Source: Paludibacteraceae bacterium
GTDB lineage: Bacteria > Bacteroidota > Bacteroidia > Bacteroidales > Paludibacteraceae
NCBI GenBank assembly: GCA_017387515.1
Contig: JAFOFC010000062.1
Location: 1 to 41,816, forward strand
DNA length: 41,816 nt
Direction: 5' to 3'
A program made the translations under genes and the position numbers. The notes below the pieces were generated by a model, which was given only the letters and a program-made list of their open reading frames with translations, was not told the DNA's origin and did no database searches. Every line of letters starts with the position of its first letter. Positions within the stretch are counted from its first letter, which is position 1. Below, piece by piece: positions 1,907-24,772 of this stretch.

Positions 1907-1909
1907 GTT

Positions 1910-5216: not shown

Positions 5217-5945
5217 ATGAAATATGCACTTGTTACCGGAGGTTCCAGAGGTTTAGGCCGCGCTATTTGTTGCAAGTTAGCCAAAATGGGAATACCGGTA
5301 CTTATCAACTATCAGTCCAATCAACAGGCTGCAGAAGAAGTGCGTGATGCCATCCAAAGCGAAGGGGGCAGTGCGGCGCTTATTCAGTTTAATGTAGCCA
5401 ATAAAGATGAGGTAATGGCAGCGTTGAATCAATGGGAACAAGAACACCCAGATGATTACATTGCTTACTTGGTGAACAATGCAGGCATCCGCCGCGATAA
5501 TGTGATGTTTATGATGCCCGAAGAAGATTGGAATGCTGTGATTGATACTTCGTTAAACGGATTTTTCTACGTGACTCGCCAGTTGTTGCCCAAAATGATG
5601 ATGCGCAAACACGGCGGTCGCATCATCAATATGACCTCCTTGTCGGGTTTAAAAGGCATGGCGGGTCAAACCAATTATTGTGCCGCTAAAGCCGCTTTGA
5701 TAGGAGCCACCCGTGCGCTTGCTCAAGAAGCTGCTGTGCGCAACGTAACCGTAAATGCCGTTGCCCCAGGTTTTATTGAAACCGATATGACCAAAGACCT
5801 TCCCCAAGAAGAATTGAAACAATTGGTTCCCATGAAACGATTTGGCAAACCAGAAGAAGTGGCTTCTTTGGTGGCCTTTTTGTGTTCCGATGAAGCCAGC
5901 TACATTACCGGCGAAGTGATTAGTATAAACGGAGGTCTTTATTAA
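5217..5945 (+). CDS. 3-oxoacyl-ACP reductase (FabG-like, cluster KR)
   Basis: This 242-residue short-chain dehydrogenase has the NADPH-binding TGGSRGLGR motif at residue 7, VNNAG at 86-90, and the catalytic Ser141, Tyr154 and Lys158 (in NYCAAK). It ends with the family's [17 protein letters not shown] segment. It should reduce 3-oxoacyl-ACP to 3-hydroxyacyl-ACP. As the first gene after the promoter and 18 nt ahead of a ketosynthase, it is best read as the dedicated ketoreductase of the polyene-like pathway (the ApeQ role), not the housekeeping FabG. All active-site residues are intact. Confidence 0.9.
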
Positions 5946-5963
5946 CCAATAAAACAAGAAACT

Positions 5964-7190
5964 ATGAGGCGTGTTGTTATTACAGGAATGGGTATTTGGT
6001 CTTGCTTAGGTACCTCGGTAGAGGAGGTAAAAGCATCTTTGTATGCCGGCAAATCGGGCATTGGCATAGACCCAGAAAGAACCAAATACGGATACCGTTC
6101 GCCTTTAACAGGCATTGTGCAAACCCCTGTTTTGAAAGGGAAAATAGACCGTCACATGCGTCGTGGCATGTCGGAAGAGGCCGAATACGCTTTTATGGCC
6201 AGTTCGCAAGCCTTTGAGATGGCCCATATCGATGCAGATTATTTGGAACAAAACGAGATAGGCTGTATTTTTGGCAACGACTCATCGGCTAAACCCGTTA
6301 TTGAGGCGCATAAAACCATGGAAGAAAAGAACGATACCGAATTATTGGGTCAATCTTTTATCTTCCAAGCCATGAACTCTACCGTTACCATGAATTTGAG
6401 CACCATTTTTAAATTAAAAGGGGTGAATTTTACGGTAAGTGCGGCTTGTGCCAGCGGTAGCCACTCCATTGGTTTGGCGTACATGATGATTAAAAGCGGC
6501 CAACAAGATTTGGTGCTATGCGGAGGTGCGCAAGAAACCAACCATTATTCCATGGTAACCTTTGATGCGTTGGGTGCTTTTTCAAGAAATACCGCAAACC
6601 CAGCCCAAGCCAGTAGGCCTTTTGATAGCAACCGCGACGGTTTGGTGCCCAGTGGGGGTGCAGCCGCTTTGGTGTTAGAAGATTACGACCACGCTGTGGC
6701 CCGCGGTGCCAACATCTTGGCCGAGGTGGTAGGGTATGGTTTCTCGTCAAACGGAACGGCCGTAATTAGCCAGCCCAGCGACGAGGGTTGCTTAAGAGCC
6801 ATGCAAAGAGCCCTAAAAGATGCCCAAGTAGAGCCCAAAGACATCGATTATATCAATGCCCATGCTACCAGTACCAAGCAAGGCGATGTGTTTGAGGCCA
6901 TAGCCATTGATAAACTGTTTGGCGAGCACCATACTTTGGTAACTAGTACCAAAAGTATGACGGGCCACGAATGTTGGATGGCAGGTGCCAGCGAAATTGT
7001 CTATTCCCTTATCATGATGCAAAACAATTTTGTGGCGCCCAATATCAATTTTGAGACCCCCGACGAGTATTCTAAAAAACTCAATATCCCCAACAAAACT
7101 GTAGACGTAGAGCTAAATACCGTGTTAAGCAATTCGTTTGGTTTTGGAGGAACCAACAGTGCCCTTGTGATAAAAAAAATAAATCCTTAA
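5964..7190 (+). CDS. Beta-ketoacyl-ACP synthase I (FabF-like), single domain
   Basis: This 408-residue protein is a FabF/KAS-II-type condensing enzyme of ordinary length. Its catalytic residues are Cys162 (SAACASGS), His300 (NAHATST), Lys330 and His335 (TGHE). The gatekeeping C-terminal loop reads NSFGFGGTNSALV. It would join malonyl-ACP to an acyl chain carried on one of the cluster's carrier proteins. The usual second-histidine region GHxxGAAG reads GHECWMAGAS, so an aromatic and bulky group replaces the small residues near the active site; this could affect substrate shape (inference). It is the only one of the three ketosynthases here without a C-terminal extension. Confidence 0.9.
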   Translation: MRRVVITGMGIWSCLGTSVEEVKASLYAGKSGIGIDPERTKYGYRSPLTGIVQTPVLKGKIDRHMRRGMSEEAEYAFMASSQAFEMAHIDADYLEQNEIGCIFGNDSSAKPVIEAHKTMEEKNDTELLGQSFIFQAMNSTVTMNLSTIFKLKGVNFTVSAACASGSHSIGLAYMMIKSGQQDLVLCGGAQETNHYSMVTFDALGAFSRNTANPAQASRPFDSNRDGLVPSGGAAALVLEDYDHAVARGANILAEVVGYGFSSNGTAVISQPSDEGCLRAMQRALKDAQVEPKDIDYINAHATSTKQGDVFEAIAIDKLFGEHHTLVTSTKSMTGHECWMAGASEIVYSLIMMQNNFVAPNINFETPDEYSKKLNIPNKTVDVELNTVLSNSFGFGGTNSALVIKKINP

Positions 7191-7208
7191 CAAATAACAC
7201 TTTGAATT

Positions 7209-7451
7209 ATGAATAGAGCAGAAATTGAAGAAAAAGTAAAAGCTTTTCTTATTGACGAATTGGAAGTAGACGAAAACAAAATTTTTCCCGAAGCCAAATT
7301 GAAAGAAGACATGGACATTGACAGCCTTGACTTCTTGGATATTGTGGTGATTGTAGAAAAGAACTTTGGCTTTAAAATCAATGCAGACGAGATGGCTGGC
7401 GTAGATACGTTTACCAAATTCTGCGGTTACATAGAAAGCAAAATAAGCTAA
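7209..7451 (+). CDS. Acyl carrier protein 1
   Basis: This 80-residue acidic helical protein carries the phosphopantetheine attachment site IDSLDFLD with Ser39. It follows the first ketosynthase by 18 nt and precedes the LpxL-like acyltransferase by 3 nt, so it probably presents growing or finished acyl chains to these enzymes. The sequence DMDIDSLDF is closest to the ACPs of aryl-polyene and flexirubin clusters in general style. Whether this carrier holds the starter or the growing chain cannot be told from sequence. Confidence 0.9.
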   Translation: MNRAEIEEKVKAFLIDELEVDENKIFPEAKLKEDMDIDSLDFLDIVVIVEKNFGFKINADEMAGVDTFTKFCGYIESKIS

Positions 7452-7454
7452 TAT

Positions 7455-8333
7455 ATGGCCGATAAAGCTTGGGCAGGTACCACGTATGGAGGTAGCAAAA
7501 TGCACCGTTATTTGGTGACAACCTTGCGCTATATAGATGTAAGGTTGCTGTATGGTTTTGCTGCTATCTTTGTAGTGCCTGTCTGTTTGGTTTTAAATGA
7601 AAGCCGAAAAACAGCGTACCGTTATTTTAGAGACAGGCATCAGTATGGCCGATGCAAGGCCATGTGGACCACCTACGTAAATCACTGTAAATTTGCGCAA
7701 GTGGTGATTGATAAATTTGCCATGTATGCCGGTAAAACCTTTGATGTAAAGGTAGAGGGTTTGGAGCATTTCAATGCTTTGGCCAATGGAGAAGAAGGTT
7801 TTTTGCATTTAAGTTCGCACATTGGCAATTACGAGATTGCGGGCTATACCTTAGGTTCGGATAAGAAAACCATCCAAGCAGTGGTGTATGCTTTTGAAAA
7901 AGCATCGGTTATGCAAAACCGAAACAACATGTTTTCTAAAACCAATGTAAGCATGATTACGTTGAAAGAAGACATGAGCCACCTTTTTGAAATAGACCAA
8001 GCCATTTGCAAGGGCGATATAATAAGTTTCCCTACCGACCGTTGCATGGGACAAACCAAGGTGGTAGAAGCCCTTTTTATGGGGGCAAAAGCCAAGTTTC
8101 CACAAGGTCCATTTAGTGTGGCCACCATGCGTAGCCTAAACGTATTGGCTGTAAATGTTATGAAAACGGGGCTTACCCAGTATACCATTTACGTTACACC
8201 TTTGGTATACGATAAAAGCCAGCCTCGCAAAGTACAAATGCAGCAATTGATAGCTGCCTATACCGCCGAGTTAGAGCGCCAATTGAAACAATATCCTACG
8301 CAATGGTATAATTTCTATGATTTTTGGAATTGA
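7455..8333 (+). CDS. LpxL/HtrB-like lysophospholipid acyltransferase
   Basis: This 292-residue protein resembles the LpxL/HtrB late acyltransferase family, which moves an acyl chain from ACP to a lipid at the inner membrane. The motif HxxxxE is visible as HIGNYE (His122-Glu127), and a hydrophobic anchor lies at about residues 31-47. The downstream sequence contains the family's DRCMGQTKV and FPQGPFSVA segments. In the pathway it may transfer the polyene chain, or a normal fatty acid, onto a lipid carrier. It overlaps the next gene by one base. The N-terminal 15 residues before MHRYL are not typical, so the real start could be Met16. Confidence 0.8.
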   Translation: MADKAWAGTTYGGSKMHRYLVTTLRYIDVRLLYGFAAIFVVPVCLVLNESRKTAYRYFRDRHQYGRCKAMWTTYVNHCKFAQVVIDKFAMYAGKTFDVKVEGLEHFNALANGEEGFLHLSSHIGNYEIAGYTLGSDKKTIQAVVYAFEKASVMQNRNNMFSKTNVSMITLKEDMSHLFEIDQAICKGDIISFPTDRCMGQTKVVEALFMGAKAKFPQGPFSVATMRSLNVLAVNVMKTGLTQYTIYVTPLVYDKSQPRKVQMQQLIAAYTAELERQLKQYPTQWYNFYDFWN

Positions 8334-8782
8334 TGGGTTCGATACAATTTTCTGAAGATTTTCTTCGTTCAATTGATGTACATACCATTCTGCCACAGCA
8401 AGAGCCTTTTGTTATGATAGACAAATTGATTGCTTTTTCGGCAGATGCATCTACTACGGAAACCACGGTTTCCGATAGCAATATTTTTGTAGACAACGGG
8501 TACTTTTCGGCATCGGGCATGATGGAAAATATTGCCCAAACCTGTGCCGCCCGCGTAGGTTTCTACAACAAATACGTGTTGCACAACGAGGTGCAAATAG
8601 GTTTCATCGGGGCTATTCGTAATTACATGATACACGAACTGCCTGCCGTAGGAACCGTTATTCACACCAAAGTGGACATTATACAAGATATTTTTGGCAT
8701 GACACTGGCCAATGCTACTATTGTAAGTGGCGATAAAGTGTTTGTTACAGCCGAAGTAAAATTATCGGTTGAAACGGTATAA
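8333..8782 (+). CDS. ApeP-like hot-dog dehydratase
   Basis: This 149-residue protein has a FabZ-like hot-dog outline: ILPQQEPFVMIDKL, then GYFSASGMMENIAQTCA. The ATG at 8333 overlaps the upstream stop by one base and is preferred over an in-frame TTG at 8324. In FabZ the catalytic pair is His in GHFPG and Glu fourteen residues on. Here Glu65 is present, but the His position is Tyr57, the PG loop is shortened by about six residues, and the otherwise conserved His of LPHR is Gln22. A shortened loop before an E..AQ motif is, as I recall, characteristic of ApeP-type proteins of aryl-polyene clusters. Its catalysis must differ from FabZ. Confidence 0.8.
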   Translation: MGSIQFSEDFLRSIDVHTILPQQEPFVMIDKLIAFSADASTTETTVSDSNIFVDNGYFSASGMMENIAQTCAARVGFYNKYVLHNEVQIGFIGAIRNYMIHELPAVGTVIHTKVDIIQDIFGMTLANATIVSGDKVFVTAEVKLSVETV

Positions 8783-8809
8783 GGGGTACGTAAATGCGCT
8801 ACATGTAGT

Positions 8810-10507
8810 ATGATTCAGGTTCTTGCCACAAATATAATTTCTCCGCTTGGGTTTACTACCCAAGAAAACTACCAAGCCGTTAAGGCCGGTAAATCGGCTC
8901 TTTTTTGCCAAGAAGTATGGAAGGGCATTCCACATGCCTTTACTGCATCGCTGTTTTCTAAGGAACAAGAGGACAGGTTTTTGGTACCGGGTTTTACCCG
9001 CTATGAATCGTTGGTGATTGCCTCCATAAAGGAAGCCTTGTTGCACACCGATGTAAACCTGCATGGCAACCGCACTGCCTTGGTAATAAGCACTACCAAA
9101 GCCAATGTAGAAAATCTGTCTATGGATGCTCATGCAGACAATAGCTATAGCAGCCCTGCCACCTCGGCCCTTAAAATAGCCCGCCATTTGGGCTTTACCA
9201 CGCAACCCATTGTGGTGTGCAATGCGTGTATCTCGGGGGTAGCGGCACAGGTGTTGGCCGATAGGTTGATTACCCACGGCAGTTACGATACGGTGGTGGT
9301 ATGTGGTGCCGATGTGCAAAATCCCTTTGTGGTATCTGGCTTTATGTCTTTTAAATCGCTTTCTCCCTATGCTTGTAGGCCGTTTGATATAGAACGTTTG
9401 GGCTTGAATTTAGGCGAGGCGGCGGCTACCATGGTGTTTGGCAAAGACCAAGCCCCCCATGCTGCTTGGAAAATGGTAGCGGGTGCGCTTAACAACGATG
9501 CTTACCACGTAAGTGCGCCATCGCCTGTGGGCGAGGGGGCGTATGCCTTGCTACAAGGTATTCAGGTCTATGCTACGCCTGCATCCTTGGCGCTGTTAAG
9601 TGTGCACGGTACGGCTACCATGTTTAACGACCAAATGGAGTCTAAAGCCATTGAAAGAGCAGGTCTTTCGGCCGTGCCTGTATCGGCTGTGAAAGGTTAT
9701 TACGGCCATACGTTGGGCGCAGCAGGGGTGGTGGAAACCATCGTTTCCATGGAATCGGTGTCCGATGGCGCGGTATTGCCCGTAAAAGGCTTTATCGAAA
9801 TAGGCGTAAGCGGCAAGGTTACCATTAGCAGTGAGGCTGTCCCTACCACTAAATCCAATTTTGTGAAAATGATATCGGGTTTTGGGGGTTGCAACGGGGT
9901 GGTGCTGTATGCCCAAAAGGAAGATTTTACCGCACCGGTTTACCAGCCTAAAAAAATCAAAACCGTGCGCCAGGTAACCATTACGCCCCAAGGTTATGCC
10001 ATAGACGGCGTAGCGCAAGCGGTGCAAACCAATGGCAAATCCTTATTGACCGAAATATACAAAACACACGTGGGCGATTACCCCAAATTCCACAAAATGG
10101 ACGTGCTGTGCAAGGTAGCTTTTTTAGCGGCCGAATTGGTGTGCAAAGACAGACCTTCCACCTGCGATGCTAACCAACGTGCTGTGGTGTTGTTTAACCA
10201 TTCGTCTTCTGTAGTGGCCGATAAAAAGCACTTGGCTACCATCCAAAAGGCAGACGAGTTTTATCCCAGCCCTTCGGTTTTTTTGTATACCTTGCCCAAT
10301 ATTACCACGGGCGAAATAGCCATTCGTCACGGTATAAAAGGCGAAACATCGCTGTATATTTTACCCGAAAACGATGCGTCACTGATGCACACCATAGTGG
10401 AAAGTACTTTTGCCTTATCGCCTGTAAAAGAAATGATTACGGGGTGGGTAGATTGCAGTGATGCCAACCTATTTGAAGCAAATATTAAGTTATTAACAAT
10501 AGAATAA
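8810..10507 (+). CDS. Beta-ketoacyl-ACP synthase II with C-terminal KS-like half domain
   Basis: This 565-residue protein has an N-terminal condensing domain with Cys140 (CNACISG), His266 (SVHGTAT), Lys295 and His300 (GHTLGAAG), followed by GFGGCNGVV near residue 365. About 185 further residues follow. In them, SVFLYTLPNITTGEIAIRHG and the final MITGWVDCSD segment look like the beta-ketoacyl-synthase N-terminal-like family (PF13723, Ketoacyl-synt_2) that occurs as a separate small protein in polyene clusters. The extension lacks catalytic residues and may be structural, replacing a chain-length factor; this is inference. The cluster has no Cys-less chain-length factor, so this KS could still pair with another KS. 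Confidence 0.85.
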   Translation: MIQVLATNIISPLGFTTQENYQAVKAGKSALFCQEVWKGIPHAFTASLFSKEQEDRFLVPGFTRYESLVIASIKEALLHTDVNLHGNRTALVISTTKANVENLSMDAHADNSYSSPATSALKIARHLGFTTQPIVVCNACISGVAAQVLADRLITHGSYDTVVVCGADVQNPFVVSGFMSFKSLSPYACRPFDIERLGLNLGEAAATMVFGKDQAPHAAWKMVAGALNNDAYHVSAPSPVGEGAYALLQGIQVYATPASLALLSVHGTATMFNDQMESKAIERAGLSAVPVSAVKGYYGHTLGAAGVVETIVSMESVSDGAVLPVKGFIEIGVSGKVTISSEAVPTTKSNFVKMISGFGGCNGVVLYAQKEDFTAPVYQPKKIKTVRQVTITPQGYAIDGVAQAVQTNGKSLLTEIYKTHVGDYPKFHKMDVLCKVAFLAAELVCKDRPSTCDANQRAVVLFNHSSSVVADKKHLATIQKADEFYPSPSVFLYTLPNITTGEIAIRHGIKGETSLYILPENDASLMHTIVESTFALSPVKEMITGWVDCSDANLFEANIKLLTIE

Positions 10508-10513
10508 AACAGT

Positions 10514-10771
10514 ATGGAACAATTAGTATTGACTTTAAAAGAACAAATTATTGAAACCCTTAATTTGGAAGAAATTACTCCCGATGATATTGAAAACGAT
10601 GCACCTCTTTTTGGTGATGGTTTGGGTCTTGACTCCATTGATGCCCTTGAGTTGATTGTTATTTTGGACAAATACTATGGCATTAAATTGGGTAGCCCTG
10701 CCGAAGCAAAAGAAATTTTTACCAGCATCAATACCATTGCAGATTACGTTGTAAAAAATCGAACAAAATAA
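10514..10771 (+). CDS. Acyl carrier protein 2
   Basis: This 85-residue carrier protein has the phosphopantetheine site LGLDSIDALEL with Ser41. It lies 6 nt after one large ketosynthase and 3 nt before the other, so it is probably the carrier used by that KS pair during chain extension. Its site (GLDSIDALEL) is closer to the canonical FAS type than those of the other two ACPs in the cluster, which would suit polyene elongation. Confidence 0.9.
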   Translation: MEQLVLTLKEQIIETLNLEEITPDDIENDAPLFGDGLGLDSIDALELIVILDKYYGIKLGSPAEAKEIFTSINTIADYVVKNRTK

Positions 10772-10774
10772 AAA

Positions 10775-12523
10775 ATGAAAAGTTTCATATCGGTAACCGG
10801 AATGGGCATTATATGCTCCATTGGTAAGGATGCAAATGCCGTGTTGGATGCGCTTAAAAAGGGCGAATCGGGCATTGGACAAATGCAATACCTACAGTCT
10901 AAACATGCTTATTTACCCGTAGGTGAGGTTAAACTTTCCAACGATGAAATGAAGCAAATGCTTGGCATTGAGGATGCTACGCCTATGAGCCGTACGTCCT
11001 TGATGGGTGCCATTGCCATAGGTGAGGCGCTGCAGCAAGCTGGCCTTACGGTAGAAAGCTTGAAGCAAAAGCGGGTAGCCCTAATATCGGGTACCACCGT
11101 GGGCGGCATGGACTTAACCGAGAATTATTACCAACAGATGAAACAAGACGATTCATTGCTGTATCTTCCCAAAAGCAATGAATGCGGCAAAAGTACCGAT
11201 GAAATGGCCCAATTGGTGGGCTTAGATGGGGCAGAAACCTGTACCATTTCTACCGCTTGTTCTTCAGCTCTGAACGCCATTATCTTGGGATCGGAAATGC
11301 TGAAGAGAGACGAGGTAGATGTGGTGATTGCCGGCGGGTCCGAAGCCCTAAGCAAGTTCCACTTAAACGGCTTTCACACCTTGATGATATTGGACAAGGA
11401 AAGATGCCGTCCTTTTGACGATACCCGTGCGGGGCTTAACTTAGGCGAGGGGGCTGCTTTTGTGGTGTTGCAAAAAAATGCCGAAAATGCATTGGCTTAT
11501 GTGTCGGGCTACGGAAACCGTTGCGACGCTTTCCACCAAACAGCTTCGTCGGATAATGGCGAGGGGGCTTATTTGGCCATGAAAGATGCCTTGGAAATGG
11601 CGGGCCTTGCTCCTAATGCCATACAGTATGTAAATGCCCACGGCACCGGAACACCCAATAACGACATTTCGGAAAGTCAATCGTTGAAACGTATTTTTGG
11701 CGACAACATGCCCTTGGTATCCAGTACCAAATCGTTTACAGGACATACCACCTCGGCATCGGGTTCCATTGAAACGGTTATATGCATCTTGGCCATGCAA
11801 AACCAGTTTGTGCCTGGTAATTTAGGCTGGAAAAACCCCATAGACGGCGGTGTAGTGCCTACCTTAGGGGCTGAAAATATCGCCTTGCAACACGTTATTT
11901 GCAATTCCTTTGGTTTTGGCGGTAATGACTCTTCCATGGTGATTAGCCTTACGGAACCTGCTACATTTGCTGCCCAATCAGAAGAGTATGCTTATAGTGT
12001 AGTAGCCGATGAAACCTTGCAAGATGCCGAAGAATTAAAGCAACTTAAGGAGTTTGTGTCGCCCATGGAATCAAGACGCATGGGTAAACTCATGAAAGCG
12101 GCTCATTTGGTGTCGTTGCGTGCGTTGCAAAAGGCCAATTTGGCTTGTCCCGATGCCATTATTACGGCCACTTCGCGCGGCATGTTGGAAACCAGTTTGC
12201 AGTTTTTGGACGATATCAACCAGTTAGACGAAGAAACCTTGAAACCTACTTTGTTTATGCAAAGTACGCACAATACGCTTAGTTCGGCCATTGCGATTCG
12301 TACCAAGTGTTATGGGTATAACTCTACCTATTCGCACGGCGACGATTCTTTCAAATGGGCCATGCGCGATGCCGAACGCTTGATTCAAACCGGCAAGGTG
12401 CAATCGGTATTGGTAGGTTGTTTTGACGAGTCTACCCCCGATTTTTCGCAAATAGCCCAAAGGTGCGGCGAGCCCATCCCTGCTGATTTGTACGCCAAAG
12501 CCGTTGTATTAGTAAGAAAATAA
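10775..12523 (+). CDS. Beta-ketoacyl-ACP synthase III with C-terminal KS-like half domain (third KS gene, FabF type)
   Basis: This 582-residue protein is FabF-type, not a FabH. The condensing domain has Cys162 (STACSSAL), His289 (NAHGTGT), Lys319 and His324 (GHTTSASG), and ends at about residue 395 with NSFGFGGNDSS. A C-terminal extension of about 185 residues follows, holding FMQSTHNTLSSAIAIRTKC, then SHGDDSF and VLVGCFDES. This is again reminiscent of the Ketoacyl-synt_2-like fold found alone in related clusters. The GHTTSASG motif replaces the usual GHxxGAAG. Together with the gene at 8810 it may form a heterodimer that sets chain length, although both retain the active-site cysteine. Confidence 0.85.
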   Translation: MKSFISVTGMGIICSIGKDANAVLDALKKGESGIGQMQYLQSKHAYLPVGEVKLSNDEMKQMLGIEDATPMSRTSLMGAIAIGEALQQAGLTVESLKQKRVALISGTTVGGMDLTENYYQQMKQDDSLLYLPKSNECGKSTDEMAQLVGLDGAETCTISTACSSALNAIILGSEMLKRDEVDVVIAGGSEALSKFHLNGFHTLMILDKERCRPFDDTRAGLNLGEGAAFVVLQKNAENALAYVSGYGNRCDAFHQTASSDNGEGAYLAMKDALEMAGLAPNAIQYVNAHGTGTPNNDISESQSLKRIFGDNMPLVSSTKSFTGHTTSASGSIETVICILAMQNQFVPGNLGWKNPIDGGVVPTLGAENIALQHVICNSFGFGGNDSSMVISLTEPATFAAQSEEYAYSVVADETLQDAEELKQLKEFVSPMESRRMGKLMKAAHLVSLRALQKANLACPDAIITATSRGMLETSLQFLDDINQLDEETLKPTLFMQSTHNTLSSAIAIRTKCYGYNSTYSHGDDSFKWAMRDAERLIQTGKVQSVLVGCFDESTPDFSQIAQRCGEPIPADLYAKAVVLVRK

Positions 12524-12526
12524 GGT

Positions 12527-13473: not shown

Positions 13474-13582
13474 TTTTATTCGGGCTGCGCCCTCATGATG
13501 AATCGTTTAATCGATGAATCGTTTTTTATTGCGATTAGGCGATTAAACAATTTAACGTCGCGAAGCGACTTTATCGACTTTT
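13474..13582. repeat. Repeat-rich gap inside the cluster
   Basis: This is the longest gap in the cluster (109 nt). It holds gggctgcgccc (short hairpin), an aatcgtttaatcgatgaatcg direct/inverted motif, gcgattaggcgattaaac, and the hairpin gtcgcgaagcgac with loop gaa. No start codon or promoter with full consensus was seen. Confidence 0.5.
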
Positions 13583-14020: not shown

Positions 14021-14023
14021 TCT

Positions 14024-17000: not shown

Positions 17001-17001
17001 T

Positions 17002-18510
17002 ATGAGTAAAAGCGCAGTAATCATAGGAGGTGGCTTGGGTGGCCTTTTTACCGGAGCGATATTGGCCAAAGAAGGAGTCAAGGTAACGGTGATAGAGAAA
17101 AATACCACCGTTGGTGGAGGCTTGCAAAGTTTTACCCGTTTTGGCGAGGTGTTTGATACCGGCATGCACATCTTGGGCGGTATGAACCCAAGCGGCAATG
17201 CCTATAAGGTGTGCCAATACTTGGGTATTTTAGATAAGGTGTGCCACCAAGAGGTAGATGCACAGGTGGTAGATAGCATTTATTTTGCATCGGATAAAAC
17301 CTATTACCACACGGCCAAAGGCAAAGAAAACTTTGTAGCAGCCTTAGCAGCGCAATTTCCTCACCAAAAAGACCATCTAACAGCCTATGTAGAAGCCATT
17401 TATCGCATAGTAGGTGAATTTGATTTGTTTTACCTGCGTTCCACAAAAGAAGGCGCGTTTCTTCCCACGTATTCAAACGAGGCCATGAGCCCCGTTAATC
17501 ACTTTATAGCCCAATACATATCCGATGAAAAATTGAGAAACGTATTGGCTTACCTCAATCCTTTCTACGGAGGGGTAGAAAACGTAACCCCTACGTACAT
17601 CCACGCCCTTATTTCGGTGTTGTACATCAACGGACCCACTCGCTTGGCTGGCGGAAGCTATTTGTTTGCCGAAGCTCTGAAAGAGGTTATTTTGCAAAAC
17701 GGGGGCGAGGTAAGGGTATCCGATGGGGTAGCCAAGGTAATGAGTGCCGATAAAACCATTACCAGCGTGATTACCCAAAAAGGCAAGGTTTATACGGCCG
17801 ATTATTACATTTGTGCCATCCATCCTTGCACCTTTTTAACCCTTTTAGACGATGTCACCTTGTTGCCCAAAGCCTTTCGCAACCGGTTAGATTCCATACC
17901 CAATACAGGGTCGGCCTTTCTTTTAAACATCAAGTTCAAAAAAGATACCTTCCCGTATATCAACCATTCCTCTTACTACATGAACAATTACGAGGATATA
18001 TGGCGTTTTGGCGACGAAACTTTTCATTGGCCCTTGGGCTTTTTGTATATTACGCCTCCCGAAAAGGAGCAAGGCGCATTTGCTAACAAACTGATAGTAA
18101 CCGCCCCCATGTCCTGGAACGAGGTGAAACAGTGGGAGCATACCACCTTGGGCCACAGACCTGCCGATTACCAGCAGTGGAAAGAAGCATGTGCCGAAAA
18201 ATTGATCCAAAAATTGACCGAAATTTATCCAAACTTTAGGGATTGCATAGAGGCCATCAATACCGCATCGCCCCTTACCATTCGCGATTATTACGGTACC
18301 AAAGAGGGGTCGATGTACGGTTTTTGCAAGGATGCCAACAACATCGTGTTATCGCAGATTCCCATCTTTACCAAAGTGCCCAATTTGTTTCTGACGGGCC
18401 AAAACTGTGGTGGACACGGCTTTTGCGGGGTGATGCTTACTGCCATTCAAACCAGCGAAGCCTTGTTGGGACAAAATTATGTGTTGAATAAAATAAATAG
18501 CCATGAGTGA
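17002..18510 (+). CDS. CrtI/phytoene-desaturase-like FAD oxidoreductase, copy 2
   Basis: This 502-residue protein is a paralogue of the preceding one, with VIIGGGLGGLFTGAILAKEG at the N-terminus, ITTVGGGLQSF-like FAD contacts (residues about 33-45), and LFLTGQNCGGHGFCGVM near residue 470. It matches copy 1 in length and in the internal RLAGGS(Y) motif for the flavin pocket, but many surface residues differ. The two copies may act on different double bonds or form a heterodimer; neither is proven. It overlaps the next acyltransferase gene by 8 nt. Confidence 0.85.
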   Translation: MSKSAVIIGGGLGGLFTGAILAKEGVKVTVIEKNTTVGGGLQSFTRFGEVFDTGMHILGGMNPSGNAYKVCQYLGILDKVCHQEVDAQVVDSIYFASDKTYYHTAKGKENFVAALAAQFPHQKDHLTAYVEAIYRIVGEFDLFYLRSTKEGAFLPTYSNEAMSPVNHFIAQYISDEKLRNVLAYLNPFYGGVENVTPTYIHALISVLYINGPTRLAGGSYLFAEALKEVILQNGGEVRVSDGVAKVMSADKTITSVITQKGKVYTADYYICAIHPCTFLTLLDDVTLLPKAFRNRLDSIPNTGSAFLLNIKFKKDTFPYINHSSYYMNNYEDIWRFGDETFHWPLGFLYITPPEKEQGAFANKLIVTAPMSWNEVKQWEHTTLGHRPADYQQWKEACAEKLIQKLTEIYPNFRDCIEAINTASPLTIRDYYGTKEGSMYGFCKDANNIVLSQIPIFTKVPNLFLTGQNCGGHGFCGVMLTAIQTSEALLGQNYVLNKINSHE

Positions 18511-19645
18511 ACGTTTTGATGATATCCGCCCTTATTACGATAGTGAAATAAACGATGCCATGTTGCGCATTGTAAAAGACCCTATCTTCTCAACACTTTC
18601 CCAATTTGTTTTTCCCAATAGGGATGTGGAAGAGGTAAAGCAGCAGGTGGCTTCCATTGATTGCATCCACCATTTTCAGCACCATGTGATGTATCCAGCC
18701 ACCCTAAGCATCGTCCAAAAAACCATGGATGACTTTACCTATAGTGGTTTGGAGCATGTTGACCCTGCCCAAAGTTACCTGTATGTTTCAAACCACCGCG
18801 ATATCATGCTGGATGCTGCCTTGTTGCAATCGGTGTTTATCAAGAATCAACTAAAAACCACCGAGATTACCTTTGGGGCCAACCTGATGCAACATCCCGT
18901 GGTAATTGACATTGGCAAATCCAATAAAATGTTTAAGGTGGAACGCCCTGGAGGTGGGCTAAGGGAGTTTTATCGGGCTTCCAAACACCTGTCTGAGTAT
19001 ATCCGCACCACCTTATTGGAAAAAAAAGAATCGGTGTGGATAGCCCAACGCAACGGTCGCACCAAAGACGGCATAGACCGCACAGACCAAGGCATCATCA
19101 ACATGTTTCGCATGAGTAGCCGCGGCAACCAAGTACAATCCATAGCCGAATTGCAAATTTTACCCGTTGCCATCTCGTATGAATGGGAACCTTGTGATGT
19201 ATTGAAAACATGGGAACTGTATGCTACCCAGCAACATGGTACGTATGTAAAACAAAAAGGCGAAGACCTAAACAGCATCCTCACCGGCATTATGCAACCC
19301 AAGGGCAAGGTGCACATTGCGCTGTGCCCACCCATTACTGCGGGCGATTTGTTGCCTTACGCCGCGTACTCAACCAATGATTTCAACCGCAAAGTAGCCG
19401 AAATCATGGACCAACGCATTTGCTCTGCCTATGTGCTGTACGCCAATAATTACATAGCGCACGATTTATTGAGCGGAACCGATACCTATGCTCAACACTA
19501 TACCGCAGCGCAAAAAGAAAAATTTGAAGCACACATGGCACATATAGATGCCCATGCACCCCAAAAAGATGTAGCCCTGTTGCGTCGTATTTTCTTGGGA
19601 ATTTATGCCCATTGTATTGATAGTAAATTGATTTTCAAGGCCTAA
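18503..19645 (+). CDS. NHRD-type glycerophosphate acyltransferase-like protein
   Basis: This 380-residue protein shows the acyltransferase signature YVSNHRDIMLDAALLQ (His98), followed by the KSNKMFKVERPGGGLREFY region and WIAQRNGRTKDGID, which replaces the usual EGTR block. It is larger than a simple PlsC and resembles a set of Bacteroidetes 1-acylglycerol-phosphate acyltransferases, some of which are fused to the MMPL exporter next door. It lacks clear membrane spans, so it probably binds the inner membrane peripherally. With the LpxL-like and PlsC-fused enzymes it makes three acyltransferases in one cluster. The stop overlaps the MMPL start by one base. Confidence 0.75.
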   Translation: MSERFDDIRPYYDSEINDAMLRIVKDPIFSTLSQFVFPNRDVEEVKQQVASIDCIHHFQHHVMYPATLSIVQKTMDDFTYSGLEHVDPAQSYLYVSNHRDIMLDAALLQSVFIKNQLKTTEITFGANLMQHPVVIDIGKSNKMFKVERPGGGLREFYRASKHLSEYIRTTLLEKKESVWIAQRNGRTKDGIDRTDQGIINMFRMSSRGNQVQSIAELQILPVAISYEWEPCDVLKTWELYATQQHGTYVKQKGEDLNSILTGIMQPKGKVHIALCPPITAGDLLPYAAYSTNDFNRKVAEIMDQRICSAYVLYANNYIAHDLLSGTDTYAQHYTAAQKEKFEAHMAHIDAHAPQKDVALLRRIFLGIYAHCIDSKLIFKA

Positions 19646-22407
19646 TGAGTTTTGTAGTAAATACCTATACGGCATTGGCCAAGCGTCGCAAGTTGCTTTG
19701 GCTTAGCTTAACCTGTTTTATCTTGCTGTTTGTATCGCTTATTTTAAAACTGAATTACAGCGAGAACATAGACGATTTTTTGCCCCTTGGTACCAGCGAC
19801 AAGGAAGCCTTGGAACTATTTAAAAACATATCGGGGGCCGAGCGCATCTACATGCTTTTTAGCAATCCAAACGATGAAGACCGCACCATTGAGGCAGCCG
19901 AATATTTTTTTGAAACGGTAAATCAGCTGGATTCTACACAGCTTTGTGGCGAAATAACGGCCCAATACGACATGCGTACCATGCAAGAAATGACCCAATT
20001 TATGTACAGCAACATGCCGTATTTTTTAACCACGGCCGATTATGCCCGCATGGATTCTTTGCTGTTGCAACCGGGTTACTTGGATCATTGCATGCAACTC
20101 AATAAACAGAAGTTGATGTTCCCATCCATGGGCATCACTACTTCTACCATTACCCACGACCCATTGGGGCTATTCTCGCCTGTGTTTGCTCCGTTGCAAC
20201 GCCTCAATCCGCAGGTAAACTTTGAAATGTACGAGGGGTATATTTTTACGCCCGATATGAGCCGATGCATTGCCATGATGGATTCGCCCTATGGCAACAC
20301 CGAAACCAACCAAAATGCCCAAATGTTGGCCGTGTTGCACCAAGCGGTCGATAGCCTGAGCCTGCATTATCCCGATGTACCCCTGCACATCATTGGCGGC
20401 CCCGAAATAGCCATGGGCAATGCCAGTAGAATCAAGCAAGACACCGTTATCACCGTTATGATATCGGTTATCCTCATAACGCTTTTGATAGTGTATGCCA
20501 TAGGTTCCGTGCGCAACCTGTTGCTTATCTTTTTAAGCATCGGGTGGGGTGGATTGTTTGCTTTGGCAGGCATGTCGCTCTTGGTAGATAAGGTTTCCAT
20601 CATTGTGTTGGGTATCTCCAGCGTGATAGTAGGCATTGCCGTGAATTATCCCTTGCACCTTATTGTACACCACGCGCACCAGCCCAATATCAAAGCCACC
20701 CTCAAAGATTTGTTGCGTCCCTTGCTTATAGGCAACATCACCACCGTGGGTGCCTTTATGACCCTGATACCCCTTAAATCGGTGGCGTTGCGCGATTTGG
20801 GCTTGTTTGCCTCGTTGCTTTTGGTGGGCACCATTTTGTTTGTGATTTTTTACTTGCCCCACCTGCTTTCCTCGCGTAAAATTACTGAAAAACGCTCGCA
20901 GGCAATTGATAAAATAGCCCGCATGGAGCCCGATAAAAACAAGTGGATTACTACTGGTGTAGTGGCGTTAACTGCCGTGTTGCTGCTGTTTAGTTTCCAT
21001 ACGGAATTTGACTCCAATGTAGCCAATATCAACTACATGACCGATGAAATGCGCAGCGATATGCAGTATTTTCAGCAAATTTTGTCCGATGGAGCTACCC
21101 ACGATACCCGCCAAGTGTACGTTTTTACAGCTGCCCCCAATTACGACGAAGCCCTGATGCAAAACACGGCTGTGGTTCAAACATTGGACAGCCTGCAGGC
21201 AGCCGGTTTGATAAACCATTACAAAGGCGTGGCACCTTTCTTGGTGTCTAAGCAAGAGCAACAGCAAAGATTGGACCAATGGCTTGCTTTTGTAAACAAA
21301 CACCGTGCCCAATTCACTACTGAATTGACGGCAGCCGCCCAACGCCAAGGGTTCTCTGCCAAAGCCTTTGCACCTTTTCAATATTTGGTAGAGAAGGCAG
21401 GCAGTTTGACCCCGCAAGATATGGCATTCTTTGCCCCGCTTACCCACAAATTATTGAGCCAACAAGTGGCCCAAGTGGGCAGCACCCAAAAATCGTACAT
21501 TGTAAACACCCTTACGGTGCACAAGGACCAGGTTGAAAACATCAAAACCTATTTTGATAATAGTTTTGATGTGGTTAGCATGAACAGTGCCTTGTCTAAT
21601 AATTTATCCGATAATTTCAACTACATCGGTTTGGTGTGTTCTACCATTGTGTTCTTGTTTCTTTGGTTCTCTTTTGGTCGCATCGAGTTGGCTATTATTG
21701 CCTTTGTTCCCATGGTAGTCAGTTGGATTTGGATATTGGGCTTGATGTCGCTGTTAGGTATCAAGTTTAACATTGTCAATGTGATATTGGCCACCTTTAT
21801 TTTTGGACAAGGCGACGATTACACCATCTTTATGACCGAGGGTTGCCAATACGAGTACACGCACGGAAAACCCGTCTTGGCATCGTACAAAAGCAGTATC
21901 TTGCAATCGGCCCTTATCATGTTGGTAAGCATAGGTACGCTTATTTTTGCCCAACACCCAGCCATGCGTTCGTTGGCCGAAGTGACTATTGTGGGCATGC
22001 TGTCGGTGGTGTTGATGTCTTTTACCTTGCCCCCGTGGCTGTTTGGCCTGCTTACCCAGAAAAACGGCAAGCCAAGGCTGCATCCCATTACTTTAAAGAT
22101 CTTGCTAAAAGGTGTACCAAAAAATGATACAGAGTTGGTGATAGGCAGGTACCTATACAAAGGCACGTTTTTGGTAAATGCTGTAAAACAAAACTTAAAA
22201 AGCCAAGTACCTGCATTAGAGGCTCTTCCTGTAAACGGTGCGGCTACGTATGCCTATACCGATACCGGTTACGGCGAGTGTGCGTTGCTGTTAGCCTTGC
22301 GCCATCCATCTACCCAAATAGTGGTGACCATGCCCGATGATGAAAAAAGAAACATCGCCCAAATGGCTGCCCAAGGATGGGTAAACAACCTTGAATTTAA
22401 ACCCTAA
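19645..22407 (+). CDS. MMPL/RND-type exporter with C-terminal Rossmann-like remnant
   Basis: This 920-residue inner-membrane exporter has one N-terminal span (about 17-37), a periplasmic region, a bundle of spans at about 268-410 and another at about 660-800, as expected for a duplicated RND/MMPL fold. The second half contains FIFGQGDDYTIF with acidic residues that could form the proton relay. After the last span there are about 95 cytoplasmic residues with GYGECALLLALRHP and IVVTMPDDEK, looking like the SAM-binding edge of a class I methyltransferase. Related Bacteroidetes proteins are trifunctional MMPL-acyltransferase-methyltransferases. Here the acyltransferase is separate and the methyltransferase is incomplete. 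It likely exports the polyene lipid. Confidence 0.85.
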   Translation: MSFVVNTYTALAKRRKLLWLSLTCFILLFVSLILKLNYSENIDDFLPLGTSDKEALELFKNISGAERIYMLFSNPNDEDRTIEAAEYFFETVNQLDSTQLCGEITAQYDMRTMQEMTQFMYSNMPYFLTTADYARMDSLLLQPGYLDHCMQLNKQKLMFPSMGITTSTITHDPLGLFSPVFAPLQRLNPQVNFEMYEGYIFTPDMSRCIAMMDSPYGNTETNQNAQMLAVLHQAVDSLSLHYPDVPLHIIGGPEIAMGNASRIKQDTVITVMISVILITLLIVYAIGSVRNLLLIFLSIGWGGLFALAGMSLLVDKVSIIVLGISSVIVGIAVNYPLHLIVHHAHQPNIKATLKDLLRPLLIGNITTVGAFMTLIPLKSVALRDLGLFASLLLVGTILFVIFYLPHLLSSRKITEKRSQAIDKIARMEPDKNKWITTGVVALTAVLLLFSFHTEFDSNVANINYMTDEMRSDMQYFQQILSDGATHDTRQVYVFTAAPNYDEALMQNTAVVQTLDSLQAAGLINHYKGVAPFLVSKQEQQQRLDQWLAFVNKHRAQFTTELTAAAQRQGFSAKAFAPFQYLVEKAGSLTPQDMAFFAPLTHKLLSQQVAQVGSTQKSYIVNTLTVHKDQVENIKTYFDNSFDVVSMNSALSNNLSDNFNYIGLVCSTIVFLFLWFSFGRIELAIIAFVPMVVSWIWILGLMSLLGIKFNIVNVILATFIFGQGDDYTIFMTEGCQYEYTHGKPVLASYKSSILQSALIMLVSIGTLIFAQHPAMRSLAEVTIVGMLSVVLMSFTLPPWLFGLLTQKNGKPRLHPITLKILLKGVPKNDTELVIGRYLYKGTFLVNAVKQNLKSQVPALEALPVNGAATYAYTDTGYGECALLLALRHPSTQIVVTMPDDEKRNIAQMAAQGWVNNLEFKP

Positions 22408-22411
22408 AAAT

Positions 22412-22636
22412 ATGAAAGCAAACATTCTCTCTTTACTTACCGATGCATTGCCCGCGGTAGATTTTGAATCCGATTTTTTATTCAGCGAGTTGGACTCGTT
22501 GGGCATTGCAACCATCATTGTGTTGTTGGCCAAAGAATACAACATCTCTTTGGATGCAACCGATGTTACCCCTAAAAACTTTAAAACCATCGATGCTATT
22601 GTGAACATGGTGGCATCAAAAATCGAACAAAAATAA
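22412..22636 (+). CDS. Acyl carrier protein 3
   Basis: This 74-residue protein is counted from the ATG 4 nt after the exporter stop; an in-frame TTG upstream would lie inside the exporter gene. It has the carrier-protein motif FSELDSLGIATIIVLL with the phosphopantetheine Ser29. It stands 2 nt before the adenylating ligase, the usual setting of the ACP that receives the activated starter. The short first helix and the absence of the acidic D before DSL (it reads ELDSL) make it the most divergent of the three carrier proteins. Confidence 0.8.
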   Translation: MKANILSLLTDALPAVDFESDFLFSELDSLGIATIIVLLAKEYNISLDATDVTPKNFKTIDAIVNMVASKIEQK

Positions 22637-22638
22637 CC

Positions 22639-23958
22639 ATGACTTTAGAAAATTACATAGCGCAACACGCCCTGTCTATGCCCCATAAGGTAGCGGTAGA
22701 GTGTGCAGGCGATTCCATTACCTATGCCCAGCTGTGGGAGCAAATTCAACTGCGTGCCGAGAAGCTAAAAGCGCAGGGTGTAGAGCCTCACAGACCTTAC
22801 GTTTTTAGGGCTTCGCAAAACATTGACTTTATTATTTCTTATTGTGCCGTGCACCATGCTGGTGCCATTGCCGTTCCTTTGGAACAAGGGGCAACGGATG
22901 CTTACTTTCAGCAAGTGCAGGCCGAGGTGGAAGCGTGTACCTTTGCCGATGATATAGTAGATATTCTCTATACCACGGGCACTACGGGCAAGGCGAAAGG
23001 CGTGATGCTGTCGGAAACAGCCTTGGACGCTTGTACCGATAATTTTATTGCCGATTTGCAGTTTACCCCCGAATTGCTGTTTATCATTAGCGGCCCCCTA
23101 AGCCACATTGCATCTTTGTTTAAAATGCACCCTGTGCTAACCGTGGGTGGAACCGTATGCGTGTTAGACGGACTAAAAGACATCAACGCTTTCTTCCAAG
23201 TGTTTGATTTGCCTTACCAAAAATTTGCCACCTTTTTGGTACCTGCCAGCATCCGCATGATTATGCAATTCTCTTACGAAAGGTTGTGTCAATTGGCCGA
23301 TAAAATTGACTTTATTGAAACAGGTGCTGCGCCCATTACGGGGCACGATATGCAAATGCTAAGCGAGGCTTTGCCGCATTCGCGCCTGTACAATACCTTG
23401 GGCGGTACGGAAATTGGCGCCGTTTGTACGTACAATTTCAACGATGGCAAATACATGGAAGGCTGCATTGGCCGCCCCATGAAAAACTCTACCGTTGAGG
23501 TGATGGCCGATGGCGGCATTGTGGTATCGGGCTCTACCATTATGAGTGGTTACGTAGCCGATGAGCAAACCACAGCCAGTGTGTTAAAGGACGGCAAAAT
23601 TTACCTATCCGATTTGGGTTACGTGGATGAGGAAGGATTGATTCACCTAATTGGTCGTCAAGGTGACGTAATCAACGTAGGGGGGTACAAAGTGAATCCT
23701 GTTGAGGTAGAAAGTGCTGCCATATCGCACCCTGCTGTGAAAGATTGCATTTGTATCAAAGCCGAACACCCTGTTATTGGTACGGTGCTAAAATTGTTGC
23801 TGGTATTGGCCGATGGCTTTGATTTGGATAAACGTTCCATTGCGGTGCACATCAAGTCCAAATTGGAATCGTACAAAATTCCTACTTATTACGAGGCTGT
23901 AGACCGTATAGAGCGTACTTATAACGGAAAATTAGACAGAAAATATTATCAAAAATAA
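22639..23958 (+). CDS. ANL-superfamily acyl/aryl-AMP ligase (starter activation)
   Basis: This 439-residue adenylating enzyme has the ATP motif YTTGTTGKAKG (111-121), LYNTLGGTEIGAV, the DLGYVDEEG hinge region and GRQGDVINVGGYKVNPVEVE. Near the end, YNGKLDR supplies the catalytic Lys431. It would activate an aromatic or fatty acid and, by position, load it on the carrier protein encoded just upstream (the ApeH role). At 439 residues it is clearly shorter than the usual 500-550 because the N-terminal region before the ATP motif is reduced; all core motifs remain. No gene for making the aromatic acid lies in the window, so the substrate is unknown. Confidence 0.85.
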   Translation: MTLENYIAQHALSMPHKVAVECAGDSITYAQLWEQIQLRAEKLKAQGVEPHRPYVFRASQNIDFIISYCAVHHAGAIAVPLEQGATDAYFQQVQAEVEACTFADDIVDILYTTGTTGKAKGVMLSETALDACTDNFIADLQFTPELLFIISGPLSHIASLFKMHPVLTVGGTVCVLDGLKDINAFFQVFDLPYQKFATFLVPASIRMIMQFSYERLCQLADKIDFIETGAAPITGHDMQMLSEALPHSRLYNTLGGTEIGAVCTYNFNDGKYMEGCIGRPMKNSTVEVMADGGIVVSGSTIMSGYVADEQTTASVLKDGKIYLSDLGYVDEEGLIHLIGRQGDVINVGGYKVNPVEVESAAISHPAVKDCICIKAEHPVIGTVLKLLLVLADGFDLDKRSIAVHIKSKLESYKIPTYYEAVDRIERTYNGKLDRKYYQK

Positions 23959-23962
23959 CAAC

Positions 23963-24772
23963 ATGGCATTATTTAGCAAGTTAAAGGCTCTGTTTGGGGG
24001 CAAAAAAGAAAAATACATAATTTTTGGCGAGCAAGGTGGCATTTCCTCTTGCATTACCTTGCCAAAAGGCTTTAATCCGTCTACCGACAAATGCCGCATG
24101 GCCATTTTGATGCATGGTTTTATGGCGAGCAAGCGGTTTTATCCCATACCCAATTTGGCGCAAGCGTTGGCCGATGTGGGTATTGCATCCATCAGTTTTG
24201 ATTTCAATGCGCATGGTAAAAGCCAAGGGGAGTTTATCAACATGACCATAGAAAATGAAATATCCGATGCCAAAGCGGTGTTGGATTACGTAAGAACTTT
24301 ACCTTATGTAACGGATGTGGTTTTTGTGGCCCACTCGCAAGGTGGAGTAGTGGCCAGTATGTTGGCGGGTAGATTGCTCAAGGGTGAACAGCCCTCTTGT
24401 ATGGTGTTATTGGCTCCTGCGGCAGTGTTGAAAGACGATGCGCTTGCGGGTACTTGTATGGGTAAAAAATACGACCCCGTAAATATTCCCGAATACGTGA
24501 ATGTGATGTTCCACAAATTGGGCCGTGAATTTATTCAAATTGCCCAAAAGCTGCCCATTTATGAGACGGCTTGTGCTTACCAAGGCCCTGTTTGCCTCAT
24601 CCACGGCAAAAAAGATACCATTGTACCTTTTTCATACAGCGAGAAATTCCATCAGCAATACGCTCACAGCGAACTGCACTTGTTAGAAGAAGAAGGACAC
24701 TTCCTCCGCTCCAACAAACCAGCCGTGATGCAGCTGGTAACCCAATTTATCACCGCTACCCCCAACTCTTAA
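23963..24772 (+). CDS. Alpha/beta hydrolase (esterase/thioesterase-like), last cluster gene
   Basis: This 269-residue serine hydrolase has the oxyanion HGFM motif at 51-54, the nucleophile elbow in AHSQGG (Ser125), Asp218 in HGKKDTIVP and His246 in EEEGHF. It is like the BAAT/feruloyl-esterase-like monoacyl hydrolases. As the last gene of the cluster, 4 nt after the ligase, it might release or edit misprimed carrier-bound chains, or cleave the product from a lipid. It lacks a signal peptide, so it should act in the cytoplasm. The specific reaction cannot be read from sequence. Confidence 0.8.
   Translation: MALFSKLKALFGGKKEKYIIFGEQGGISSCITLPKGFNPSTDKCRMAILMHGFMASKRFYPIPNLAQALADVGIASISFDFNAHGKSQGEFINMTIENEISDAKAVLDYVRTLPYVTDVVFVAHSQGGVVASMLAGRLLKGEQPSCMVLLAPAAVLKDDALAGTCMGKKYDPVNIPEYVNVMFHKLGREFIQIAQKLPIYETACAYQGPVCLIHGKKDTIVPFSYSEKFHQQYAHSELHLLEEEGHFLRSNKPAVMQLVTQFITATPNS

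What the first reader, a model, noticed from the sequence alone, without database searches (positions are those of the whole stretch)
5217..24772. 19.5-kb polyene-like biosynthetic cluster with non-standard content
Eighteen co-directional genes with a single full promoter and nearly all gaps under 30 nt or overlapping form one operon. The composition (KR, three KS, three ACPs, two dehydratases, AMP ligase, LolA, MMPL, GT2-acyltransferase, LpxL-like) is that of aryl-polyene/flexirubin pathways. However, no ammonia-lyase (ASGDL-type), no DarA/DarB and no complete methyltransferase are present, and all three KS keep the active-site cysteine, so there is no classic chain-length factor. The starter may be made elsewhere or may not be aromatic. 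The product could be a new acylated polyene lipid.
Basis: partly seen in the sequence, partly recalled or inferred. Interest (0 to 1): 0.7.

Follow-up and report, generated by a model that had tools for sequence, protein, structure and literature searches.

The report
Lyase-free polyene lipid gene cluster
This gut bacterium carries a known type of gene set for yellow polyene membrane lipids, but belongs to a widespread gut and rumen subgroup that has swapped the usual tyrosine-based first step for a different loading module, so its first building block is still unknown.

Summary
The cluster is real: 19 (not 18) intact co-directional genes at 5217-24772. It is an aryl-polyene (ape)/flexirubin-type type II PKS operon: 12 of 19 proteins match E. 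coli CFT073 ape proteins (E<=2.1e-5) and two pass NCBIfam flexirubin cut-offs. Two CrtD/CRTISO-like FAD oxidoreductases were missed.

What is new is the starter module. Most Bacteroidales clusters sit in genomes with a cluster-type tyrosine ammonia-lyase (TAL). This one has an ACP-AMP-ligase pair (ACP3-AMPL), fused in 17 of 80 relatives. TAL occurs in 78 of 94 cluster genomes without AMPL, 0 of 8 with it, and 0 of 50 further AMPL genomes. The window's AMPL clade mostly lacks the ring methyltransferase (35 of 37 rows, against 2 of 22 outside) and differs at two positions near the predicted acid pocket.

Verdict: new variant of a known kind, seen in many gut and rumen Bacteroidales. The product is probably a polyene glycolipid whose starter is not made by TAL. 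The starter's identity is open.

The parts
5148..5178 (+). Bacteroides-type promoter match TTTG-N19-TATCTTTG, 38 nt before the KR start
   Evidence: 5 matches in the window, 2.06 expected; consensus recalled
5217..5945 (+). KR, ketoreductase (FlxB/ApeQ type)
   Evidence: NCBIfam FlxB_rubin_SDR 397.1 bits, cut-off 340; 44% to E. coli ApeQ
5964..7190 (+). KS1, FabB/ApeR-like ketosynthase, catalytic Cys kept
   Evidence: ApeR 36%; solved FabB chains score above 7F27
7209..7451 (+). ACP1 (ApeF-like)
   Evidence: PF00550; ApeF 35%
7455..8333 (+). LpxL-type acyltransferase (like the C-terminal half of ApeJ)
   Evidence: PF03279; ApeJ residues 280-550, E 4.6e-18
8324..8782 (+). DH1, hot-dog dehydratase subunit with the Glu of the FabZ dyad but not the His (ApeP-like); start as listed (TTG)
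   Evidence: No Pfam match; FabZ model E 4e-5
8810..10507 (+). KS2, second ApeO-like ketosynthase with a C-terminal half-KS (CLF-like) extension
   Evidence: extension only weakly CLF-like
10514..10771 (+). ACP2 (ApeE-like)
   Evidence: ApeE 51%; NF006617 84.8 bits, cut-off 70
10775..12523 (+). KS3, natural fusion of an ApeO-like ketosynthase and an ApeC-like half-size chain-length factor (about residues 418-579)
   Evidence: PF13723; ApeC 31%, E 8e-11; 6QSP_B E 3.2e-8
12527..12877 (+). Small EamA/ArnE-F-like membrane protein, candidate flippase
   Evidence: PF00892; ArnF model E 1.4e-16, 61 bits against a cut-off of 99
12877..13473 (+). LolA2 flexirubin-type carrier (ATG at 12877; my searches read it from 12868, three codons earlier)
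   Evidence: NCBIfam LolA2_flexi 173.6 bits, cut-off 125
13583..14020 (+). DH2, partner dehydratase subunit with the His but not the Glu (ApeI-like)
   Evidence: FabA-like E 1.6e-4, just below cut-off
14024..15517 (+). GT2 glycosyltransferase fused to a PlsC acyltransferase (ApeJ N-half plus ApeD-like)
15510..17000 (+). FAD1, CrtD/CrtI-like FAD oxidoreductase
   Evidence: PF01593; CrtD model E 1.2e-36, below cut-off
17002..18510 (+). FAD2, CRTISO/CrtD-like FAD oxidoreductase
   Evidence: PF01593; carotenoid isomerase model E 5.7e-30, below cut-off
18503..19645 (+). PlsC-type acyltransferase
   Evidence: PF01553
19645..22407 (+). MMPL/RND transporter (ApeM-like)
   Evidence: PF03176; ApeM 21%, E 2e-13
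22391..22636 (+). ACP3, starter carrier; start as listed (TTG)
   Evidence: PF00550; adjacent to AMPL in 58 of 80 and fused in 17 of 80 loci
22639..23958 (+). AMPL, stand-alone AMP-forming ligase, starter loading
   Evidence: PF00501 and PF13193
23963..24772 (+). Alpha/beta hydrolase
   Evidence: PF12146; homologues in the locus, either strand, in 22 of 36 near-clade loci and 1 of 44 others (counted)

Best explanation
An aryl-polyene (APE/flexirubin-type) outer-membrane lipid operon with a replaced starter module. AMPL adenylates a ready-made carboxylic acid and loads it directly onto ACP3, so no tyrosine ammonia-lyase or CoA ligase is needed (inferred). KS1, KS2 and the KS3-CLF fusion extend it with malonyl units on ACP1/ACP2; KR reduces, and a DH1-DH2 heterodimer with a split His/Glu dyad dehydrates, giving a polyene (by homology). 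FAD1 and FAD2 probably isomerise or desaturate the chain (inferred, weak). GT2-PlsC, LpxL and PlsC attach the polyene to a sugar-lipid, the ArnE/F-like protein may flip it, and MMPL and LolA2 carry it to the outer membrane (by homology and inference). The starter is most likely an unmethylated aryl acid from another source, such as scavenged plant phenolic acid or 4-hydroxybenzoate (inferred).
For: Matches to ape proteins and two flexirubin NCBIfam models over cut-off. Of 393 genomes of the order, 102 have KS2 (E<=1e-60), 8 AMPL (E<=1e-70), 86 cluster-type TAL (E<=1e-120); among the 102, TAL is in 78 of 94 without AMPL and 0 of 8 with it (Fisher P 3.4e-6, phylogeny not corrected). Of 80 named AMPL loci (a capped list) I searched 50 genomes, the 36 closest and 14 I picked from the other 44: none has TAL above 36% identity; 10 have 33-36% relatives. 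ACP3-AMPL are one ORF in 17 of 80 loci, adjacent in 58, unlinked in 5. DH1 keeps Glu in 30 of 30 rows; DH2 keeps His in 34 of 34 and lacks Glu in 32 of 34 (read by eye). The window's AMPL clade (37 rows, SH-aLRT 99, quick tree) has the methyltransferase in 2; the other 22 rows have it in 20.
Against: AMPL is only weakly similar to ApeH (25%, C-terminal part, E 5e-6), so it is not shown to be its orthologue. No substrate can be read from sequence: the adenylation part matches malonyl-CoA synthetase, 4-coumarate ligase and feruloyl-CoA synthetase about equally (79.6, 77.0, 76.5 bits), and peptide synthetases top the whole-length lists. The genome lacks UbiC, so no 4-HBA source is known. On the KS3 tree the AMPL state needs only 2 changes and one is not ruled out, so exclusivity rests on few events. 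16 of 94 AMPL-negative cluster genomes also lack TAL, including single-contig G359, which has another ligase, AMP2. Methyltransferase loss is not tied to AMPL: same-genus G004 and G013 have TAL clusters and also lack it.
Confidence: 0.7

Rival explanations
1. Ordinary TAL-dependent flexirubin-type cluster whose TAL and methyltransferase lie in the unassembled part of the MAG.
For: Genome 86.9% complete; same-genus genomes G013, G004 and G006 have cluster-type TAL.
Against: Cluster-type TAL is absent from 8 of 8 AMPL genomes, from G031 (only a 32% relative) and from 50 of 50 further ones; methyltransferase absence is shared by 35 of 37 clade rows.
Confidence: 0.07
2. The starter is a non-aromatic acid, for example a branched or short fatty acid, giving a non-aryl acylated polyene lipid.
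For: TAL and ring methyltransferase are both missing, and the clade differs at AMPL positions 158 and 255. The long-chain-fatty-acid ligase subfamily PRK06187 is AMPL's best NCBIfam match, at 187.5 bits against a cut-off of 476.
Against: More distant AMPL clusters keep the ApeB-type methyltransferase (20 of 22 rows), arguing for an aryl head there. AMPL keeps PLxHIxSL and GAAP motifs aligned with 4-coumarate ligase.
Confidence: 0.2
3. The starter is 4-hydroxybenzoate, as in E. coli/Xenorhabdus APE (a special case of the best explanation, so the odds overlap).
For: Direct loading on an ACP without CoA is the ApeH mechanism (PMC8253772); the core modules match ape.
Against: No UbiC in the genome, control rang in E. 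coli; a chorismatase family (PF21168) was also negative but its control was silent; AMPL is not clearly ApeH.
Confidence: 0.3

Closest known systems
Aryl polyene cluster of E. coli CFT073 (apeA-R; PMC8253772)
   Same: KR, ApeR-type KS, ApeO-ApeC KS/CLF, two ACPs, split dehydratase pair, GT2/acyltransferases, MMPL, LolA; no ammonia-lyase, no dar genes
   Different: CLF fused to KS; extra KS with its own half-domain; third ACP beside a different AMP ligase; two CrtD-like oxidoreductases; EamA protein; no ApeB methyltransferase, no clear ApeA, ApeG, ApeK or ApeN
Flexirubin cluster of Chitinophaga pinensis (flxA-Y, darA-B; PMC3992019)
   Same: Gene classes by the paper's text: KR, several KS, dehydratases, glycosyltransferase, acyltransferase, LolA, exporter; NCBIfam FlxB and LolA2_flexi models met
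   Different: No TAL (FlxA) and no DarB; the starter ligase was not compared with FlxY itself
TAL-bearing clusters of other Bacteroidales (e.g. L033, L037)
   Same: Many of the same core genes, largely in the same order
   Different: They carry TAL and a ligase of another subfamily (AMP2); the window has ACP3-AMPL

Membership tests
Aryl polyene (ape-type) cluster | KS plus half-size chain-length factor (ApeO-ApeC) | tested here: met
   KS3 N-part ~ApeO 35%; C-part ~ApeC 31%; 6QSP_B 3.2e-8
Aryl polyene (ape-type) cluster | ApeR-type KS, ApeQ-type KR, ApeE/F ACPs, ApeI/P dehydratases | tested here: met
   ApeR 36%, ApeQ 44%, ApeE 51%, ApeF 35%, ApeP 27%, ApeI 21% (E 2e-5)
Aryl polyene (ape-type) cluster | MMPL, LolA and GT2/acyltransferase genes | tested here: met
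   (match to ApeL itself weak, E 0.01)
Aryl polyene (ape-type) cluster | ApeH-type acyl-ACP synthetase | tested here: inconclusive
   AMPL matches ApeH only at its C-terminus, 25%, E 5e-6
Aryl polyene (ape-type) cluster | Head-group methyltransferase ApeB | tested here: not met
   None in the genome at E<=1e-20; not treated as obligatory
Aryl polyene (ape-type) cluster | Aryl starter in the product | not testable with these tools
   Needs chemistry
Flexirubin cluster | FlxB-type KR and LolA2_flexi | tested here: met
   397.1 against 340 and 173.6 against 125 bits
Flexirubin cluster | Tyrosine ammonia-lyase FlxA | tested here: not met
   PF00221 absent from the 86.9%-complete genome, control rang in 5 of 14
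Flexirubin cluster | Dialkylresorcinol gene darB | tested here: not met
   Single PF08541 protein is FabH
Flexirubin cluster | Dialkylresorcinol gene darA | not tested
   No search run

The most novel reading that the evidence does not exclude
A large clade of gut and rumen Bacteroidales builds outer-membrane polyene lipids from a starter acid that is neither tyrosine-derived coumarate nor a methylatable phenol, for example a diet-derived phenylpropanoid or a non-aromatic acid. ACP3-AMPL loads it with an altered acid pocket (A158/G255 instead of G158/A255), and ammonia-lyase and ring methyltransferase were both lost.
Probability: 0.25. Interest if true: 0.7.

Novelty: new variant of a known kind. 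Interest (0 to 1): 0.5.

Why it matters
[quoted passage not shown] a rumen survey lists 2,800 and reports differential expression of Prevotella ones (PMC8241843, passages). If a major gut and rumen subgroup starts the chain with a different acid, pathway predictions based on TAL fail there, and the products could link host diet to bacterial outer-membrane pigments. Two AMPL carriers have strain names that suggest cultured isolates (Segatella baroniae B14, Prevotella sp. ne3005), so this can be tested, although both keep the methyltransferase.

Tried and rejected
Rejected: 'no chain-length factor'; dialkylresorcinol ester (DarB absent; DarA not searched); TAL missed by assembly; a degenerate cluster (ORF lengths are like those of relatives). 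Led nowhere: reading AMPL's substrate from solved relatives; a chorismatase search whose control was silent; testing KS1 for the ApeR aryl-stacking residues, because 7F27 was not among the five alignments shown. KS2's C-terminal extension as a second CLF is only likely: hhalign P 6.6e-5, probability 64%, one PDB match at E 0.31. Literature searches joining both subjects returned 0 papers; the library is open-licence only, so this is weak evidence that the variant is unreported. On re-checking I lowered the novel case from 0.30 to 0.25, because two same-genus TAL-cluster genomes also lack the methyltransferase.
Full report
Observation. The window (G000:C59, a 1.76-Mb genome in 81 contigs, 86.9% complete) carries 19 + strand ORFs from 5217 to 24772, with domains. 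In order: KR, KS1, ACP1, LpxL-type acyltransferase, DH1, KS2, ACP2, KS3, EamA, LolA, DH2, GT2-PlsC, FAD1, FAD2, PlsC, MMPL, ACP3, AMPL, alpha/beta hydrolase. Seventeen of 18 junctions overlap or are at most 27 nt; one is 109 nt. A Bacteroides-type promoter match ends 38 nt before KR, but 5 occur in the window against 2.06 expected.

What it is. NCBIfam calls KR a flexirubin FlxB (397.1 bits, cut-off 340) and LolA a LolA2_flexi (173.6, cut-off 125). Against the 18 ape proteins of E. coli CFT073 (fetched, compared): KR-ApeQ 44%, KS1-ApeR 36%, ACP2-ApeE 51%, ACP1-ApeF 35%, DH1-ApeP 27%, DH2-ApeI 21%, KS2 and KS3-ApeO 33% and 35%, LpxL-ApeJ C-half 24%, GT2-ApeJ N-half 35%, PlsC part-ApeD 28%, MMPL-ApeM 21%, AMPL-ApeH 25% over the C-terminus only. 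That is 12 of 19 window proteins at E<=2.1e-5; LolA-ApeL is weak (E 0.01). The listing (four best per protein) showed no convincing match to ApeA, ApeG, ApeK or ApeN. The ApeB match (42-45%) belongs to the relatives' methyltransferase, not to the window.

Chain-length factor. The C-terminal ~180 residues of KS3 match ApeC (31%, E 8e-11). A profile of 11 such domains finds 48 solved sequences at E<=1: first 6QSP_B (E 3.2e-8), second 6KXD_B (5.9e-5), then KS II chains of similar score, with 7F28_A (204 aa) at 1.4e-4. [quoted passage not shown] that 6QSP_B and 7F28_A are ApeC proteins is inferred from length and recall, not read. In relatives the domain is a separate ORF of about 340 aa (L032; L052). 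KS2 has a similar extension that is separate in some relatives (L036, L037), but its CLF nature is weaker. C. pinensis flexirubin has five KS-like genes (PMC3992019: abstract, introduction and part 1 of 2 of the results read); the window's three KS proteins may hold the same five units by fusion (inference).

Dehydratase. In 30 of 30 DH1 rows the FabZ-type Glu is kept and the His is missing; in 34 of 34 DH2 rows the His is kept and in 32 the Glu is replaced (L036 and L066 have Glu). E. coli ApeP and ApeI show the same split (dyad positions recalled, read by eye). The two dehydratases are best read as one heterodimer.

Starter module. Of the 40 relatives' stretches fetched, many cut by contig ends, 15 hold TAL; Pfam confirmed Lyase_aromatic in the five such ORFs I scanned (L032, L033, L036, L037, L050). 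Ligases scanned in L033, L037, L044 and L047 belong to another subfamily (AMP2). The window and G031 carry ACP3-AMPL instead. Searching 393 genomes of the order: KS2 in 102, AMPL in 8, cluster-type TAL in 86. Of the KS2 genomes, TAL is in 78 of 94 without AMPL and 0 of 8 with it (16 have neither, and 8 TAL genomes lack KS2 at the threshold). G031 has only a 32% relative. I searched 50 of those 80 genomes, the 36 closest and 14 picked by me from the other 44: none has TAL above 36% identity, including Segatella baroniae B14 and Prevotella sp. ne3005. This set may overlap with the 393. On a KS3 tree of 55 rows the AMPL label needs 2 changes, with one not ruled out, so the P value overstates independence.

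ACP3 and AMPL form one ORF in 17 of 80 loci, are adjacent in 58 and unlinked in 5. This is the strongest evidence that AMPL loads ACP3 directly.

Methyltransferase. An ApeB-type methyltransferase is absent from the window's genome and present in the 8 other AMPL genomes (G031, G061, G090, G146, G245, G326, G358, G419; E<=1e-20). In the 50 named genomes it is in 2 of the 36 closer ones (L086-L121) and 12 of the 14 more distant ones (E<=1e-40). On an AMPL tree of 59 rows (quick search, SH-aLRT only) the closer ones and the window form one group (99; 37 rows: 35 without, 2 with), against 20 of 22 with it outside. Completeness of these 50 genomes was not given. Against a special meaning: only 4 of the 15 same-genus genomes searched have the gene, and G004 and G013, which have TAL clusters, lack it. 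So the loss is not peculiar to AMPL clusters.

Pocket. Three AMPL columns separate the two groups perfectly (37 against 22 rows): F136/L, A158/G and G255/A; two more pass a looser filter. In the alignment to a 4-coumarate ligase (5bsw), 158 falls on the Tyr of its HIYSL motif and 255 on the Gly of its YGMTE motif; that these line the acid pocket is recalled. Shared ancestry alone could explain the pattern, but it fits a substrate change. The alpha/beta hydrolase also marks the group (22 of 36 near loci, 1 of 44 others, counted).

Attachment and export. The GT2 domain is nearest to polyprenyl-phosphate glycosyltransferases (AglJ, PpgS) and EamA to ArnF/ArnE, all below cut-off, suggesting a sugar-lipid that is flipped before MMPL/LolA2 export. 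FAD1 and FAD2 resemble CrtD/CRTISO but fall below cut-offs; FAD1-like genes are in 40 and FAD2-like in 43 of 80 AMPL loci and also beside clusters of TAL genomes (e.g. L049, L063), so they are not specific to this variant.

Known or not. Rumen genomes are known to carry many antiSMASH 'aryl polyene' clusters, Prevotella among the carriers (PMC8241843, passages); the flexirubin cluster cloud has at least five families (PMC9248904, passages). I found no description of the ACP3-AMPL variant: searches returned 0 papers, and in the listings I saw titles and abstract beginnings only; the library is partial. Celluxanthenes, arylpolyenes of other anaerobes, incorporate phenylacetate and not hydroxybenzoate (PMC12144888, passages), showing that other aryl starters exist.

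Noticed in passing
window 13918-13966: A near-perfect palindromic repeat (19-nt arms, 95% complementary, containing CCTGAGCTTGTCGAAGG) sits in frame inside DH2 and lengthens it; inexact copies of the core lie at 4980, 36063 and 37556 (4 matches with up to 3 mismatches, 0.02 expected).
   Followed up: partly
window 8324-8782 and 13583-14020; E. coli ApeP/ApeI in L085: The FabZ catalytic dyad is split between the two dehydratases, Glu in one and His in the other.
   Followed up: partly
G359 (L052, L082): A single-contig genome has the cluster with AMP2 ligase (81% to that of a TAL cluster) but neither cluster-type TAL nor AMPL, so a third starter arrangement exists.
   Followed up: no
L113-L116: In four relatives the cluster is split into oppositely oriented blocks around ACP3-AMPL, and GT2-PlsC is matched by two separate ORFs.
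   Followed up: no
window 4302-4873 and 25032-26653: The operon is flanked by a Txe/YoeB-type toxin gene with a small upstream ORF, and by a small ORF with a HipA-like gene (below its cut-off), possible traces of mobility.
   Followed up: no
window 71-2920: A two-gene 2-oxoacid:ferredoxin oxidoreductase lies 2.3 kb upstream; no link to the cluster shown.
   Followed up: no
L160 (Segatella baroniae B14): ACP3-AMPL lies beside an oppositely oriented KS2 without most of the cluster within 10 kb, so the pathway looks scattered in this strain.
   Followed up: no
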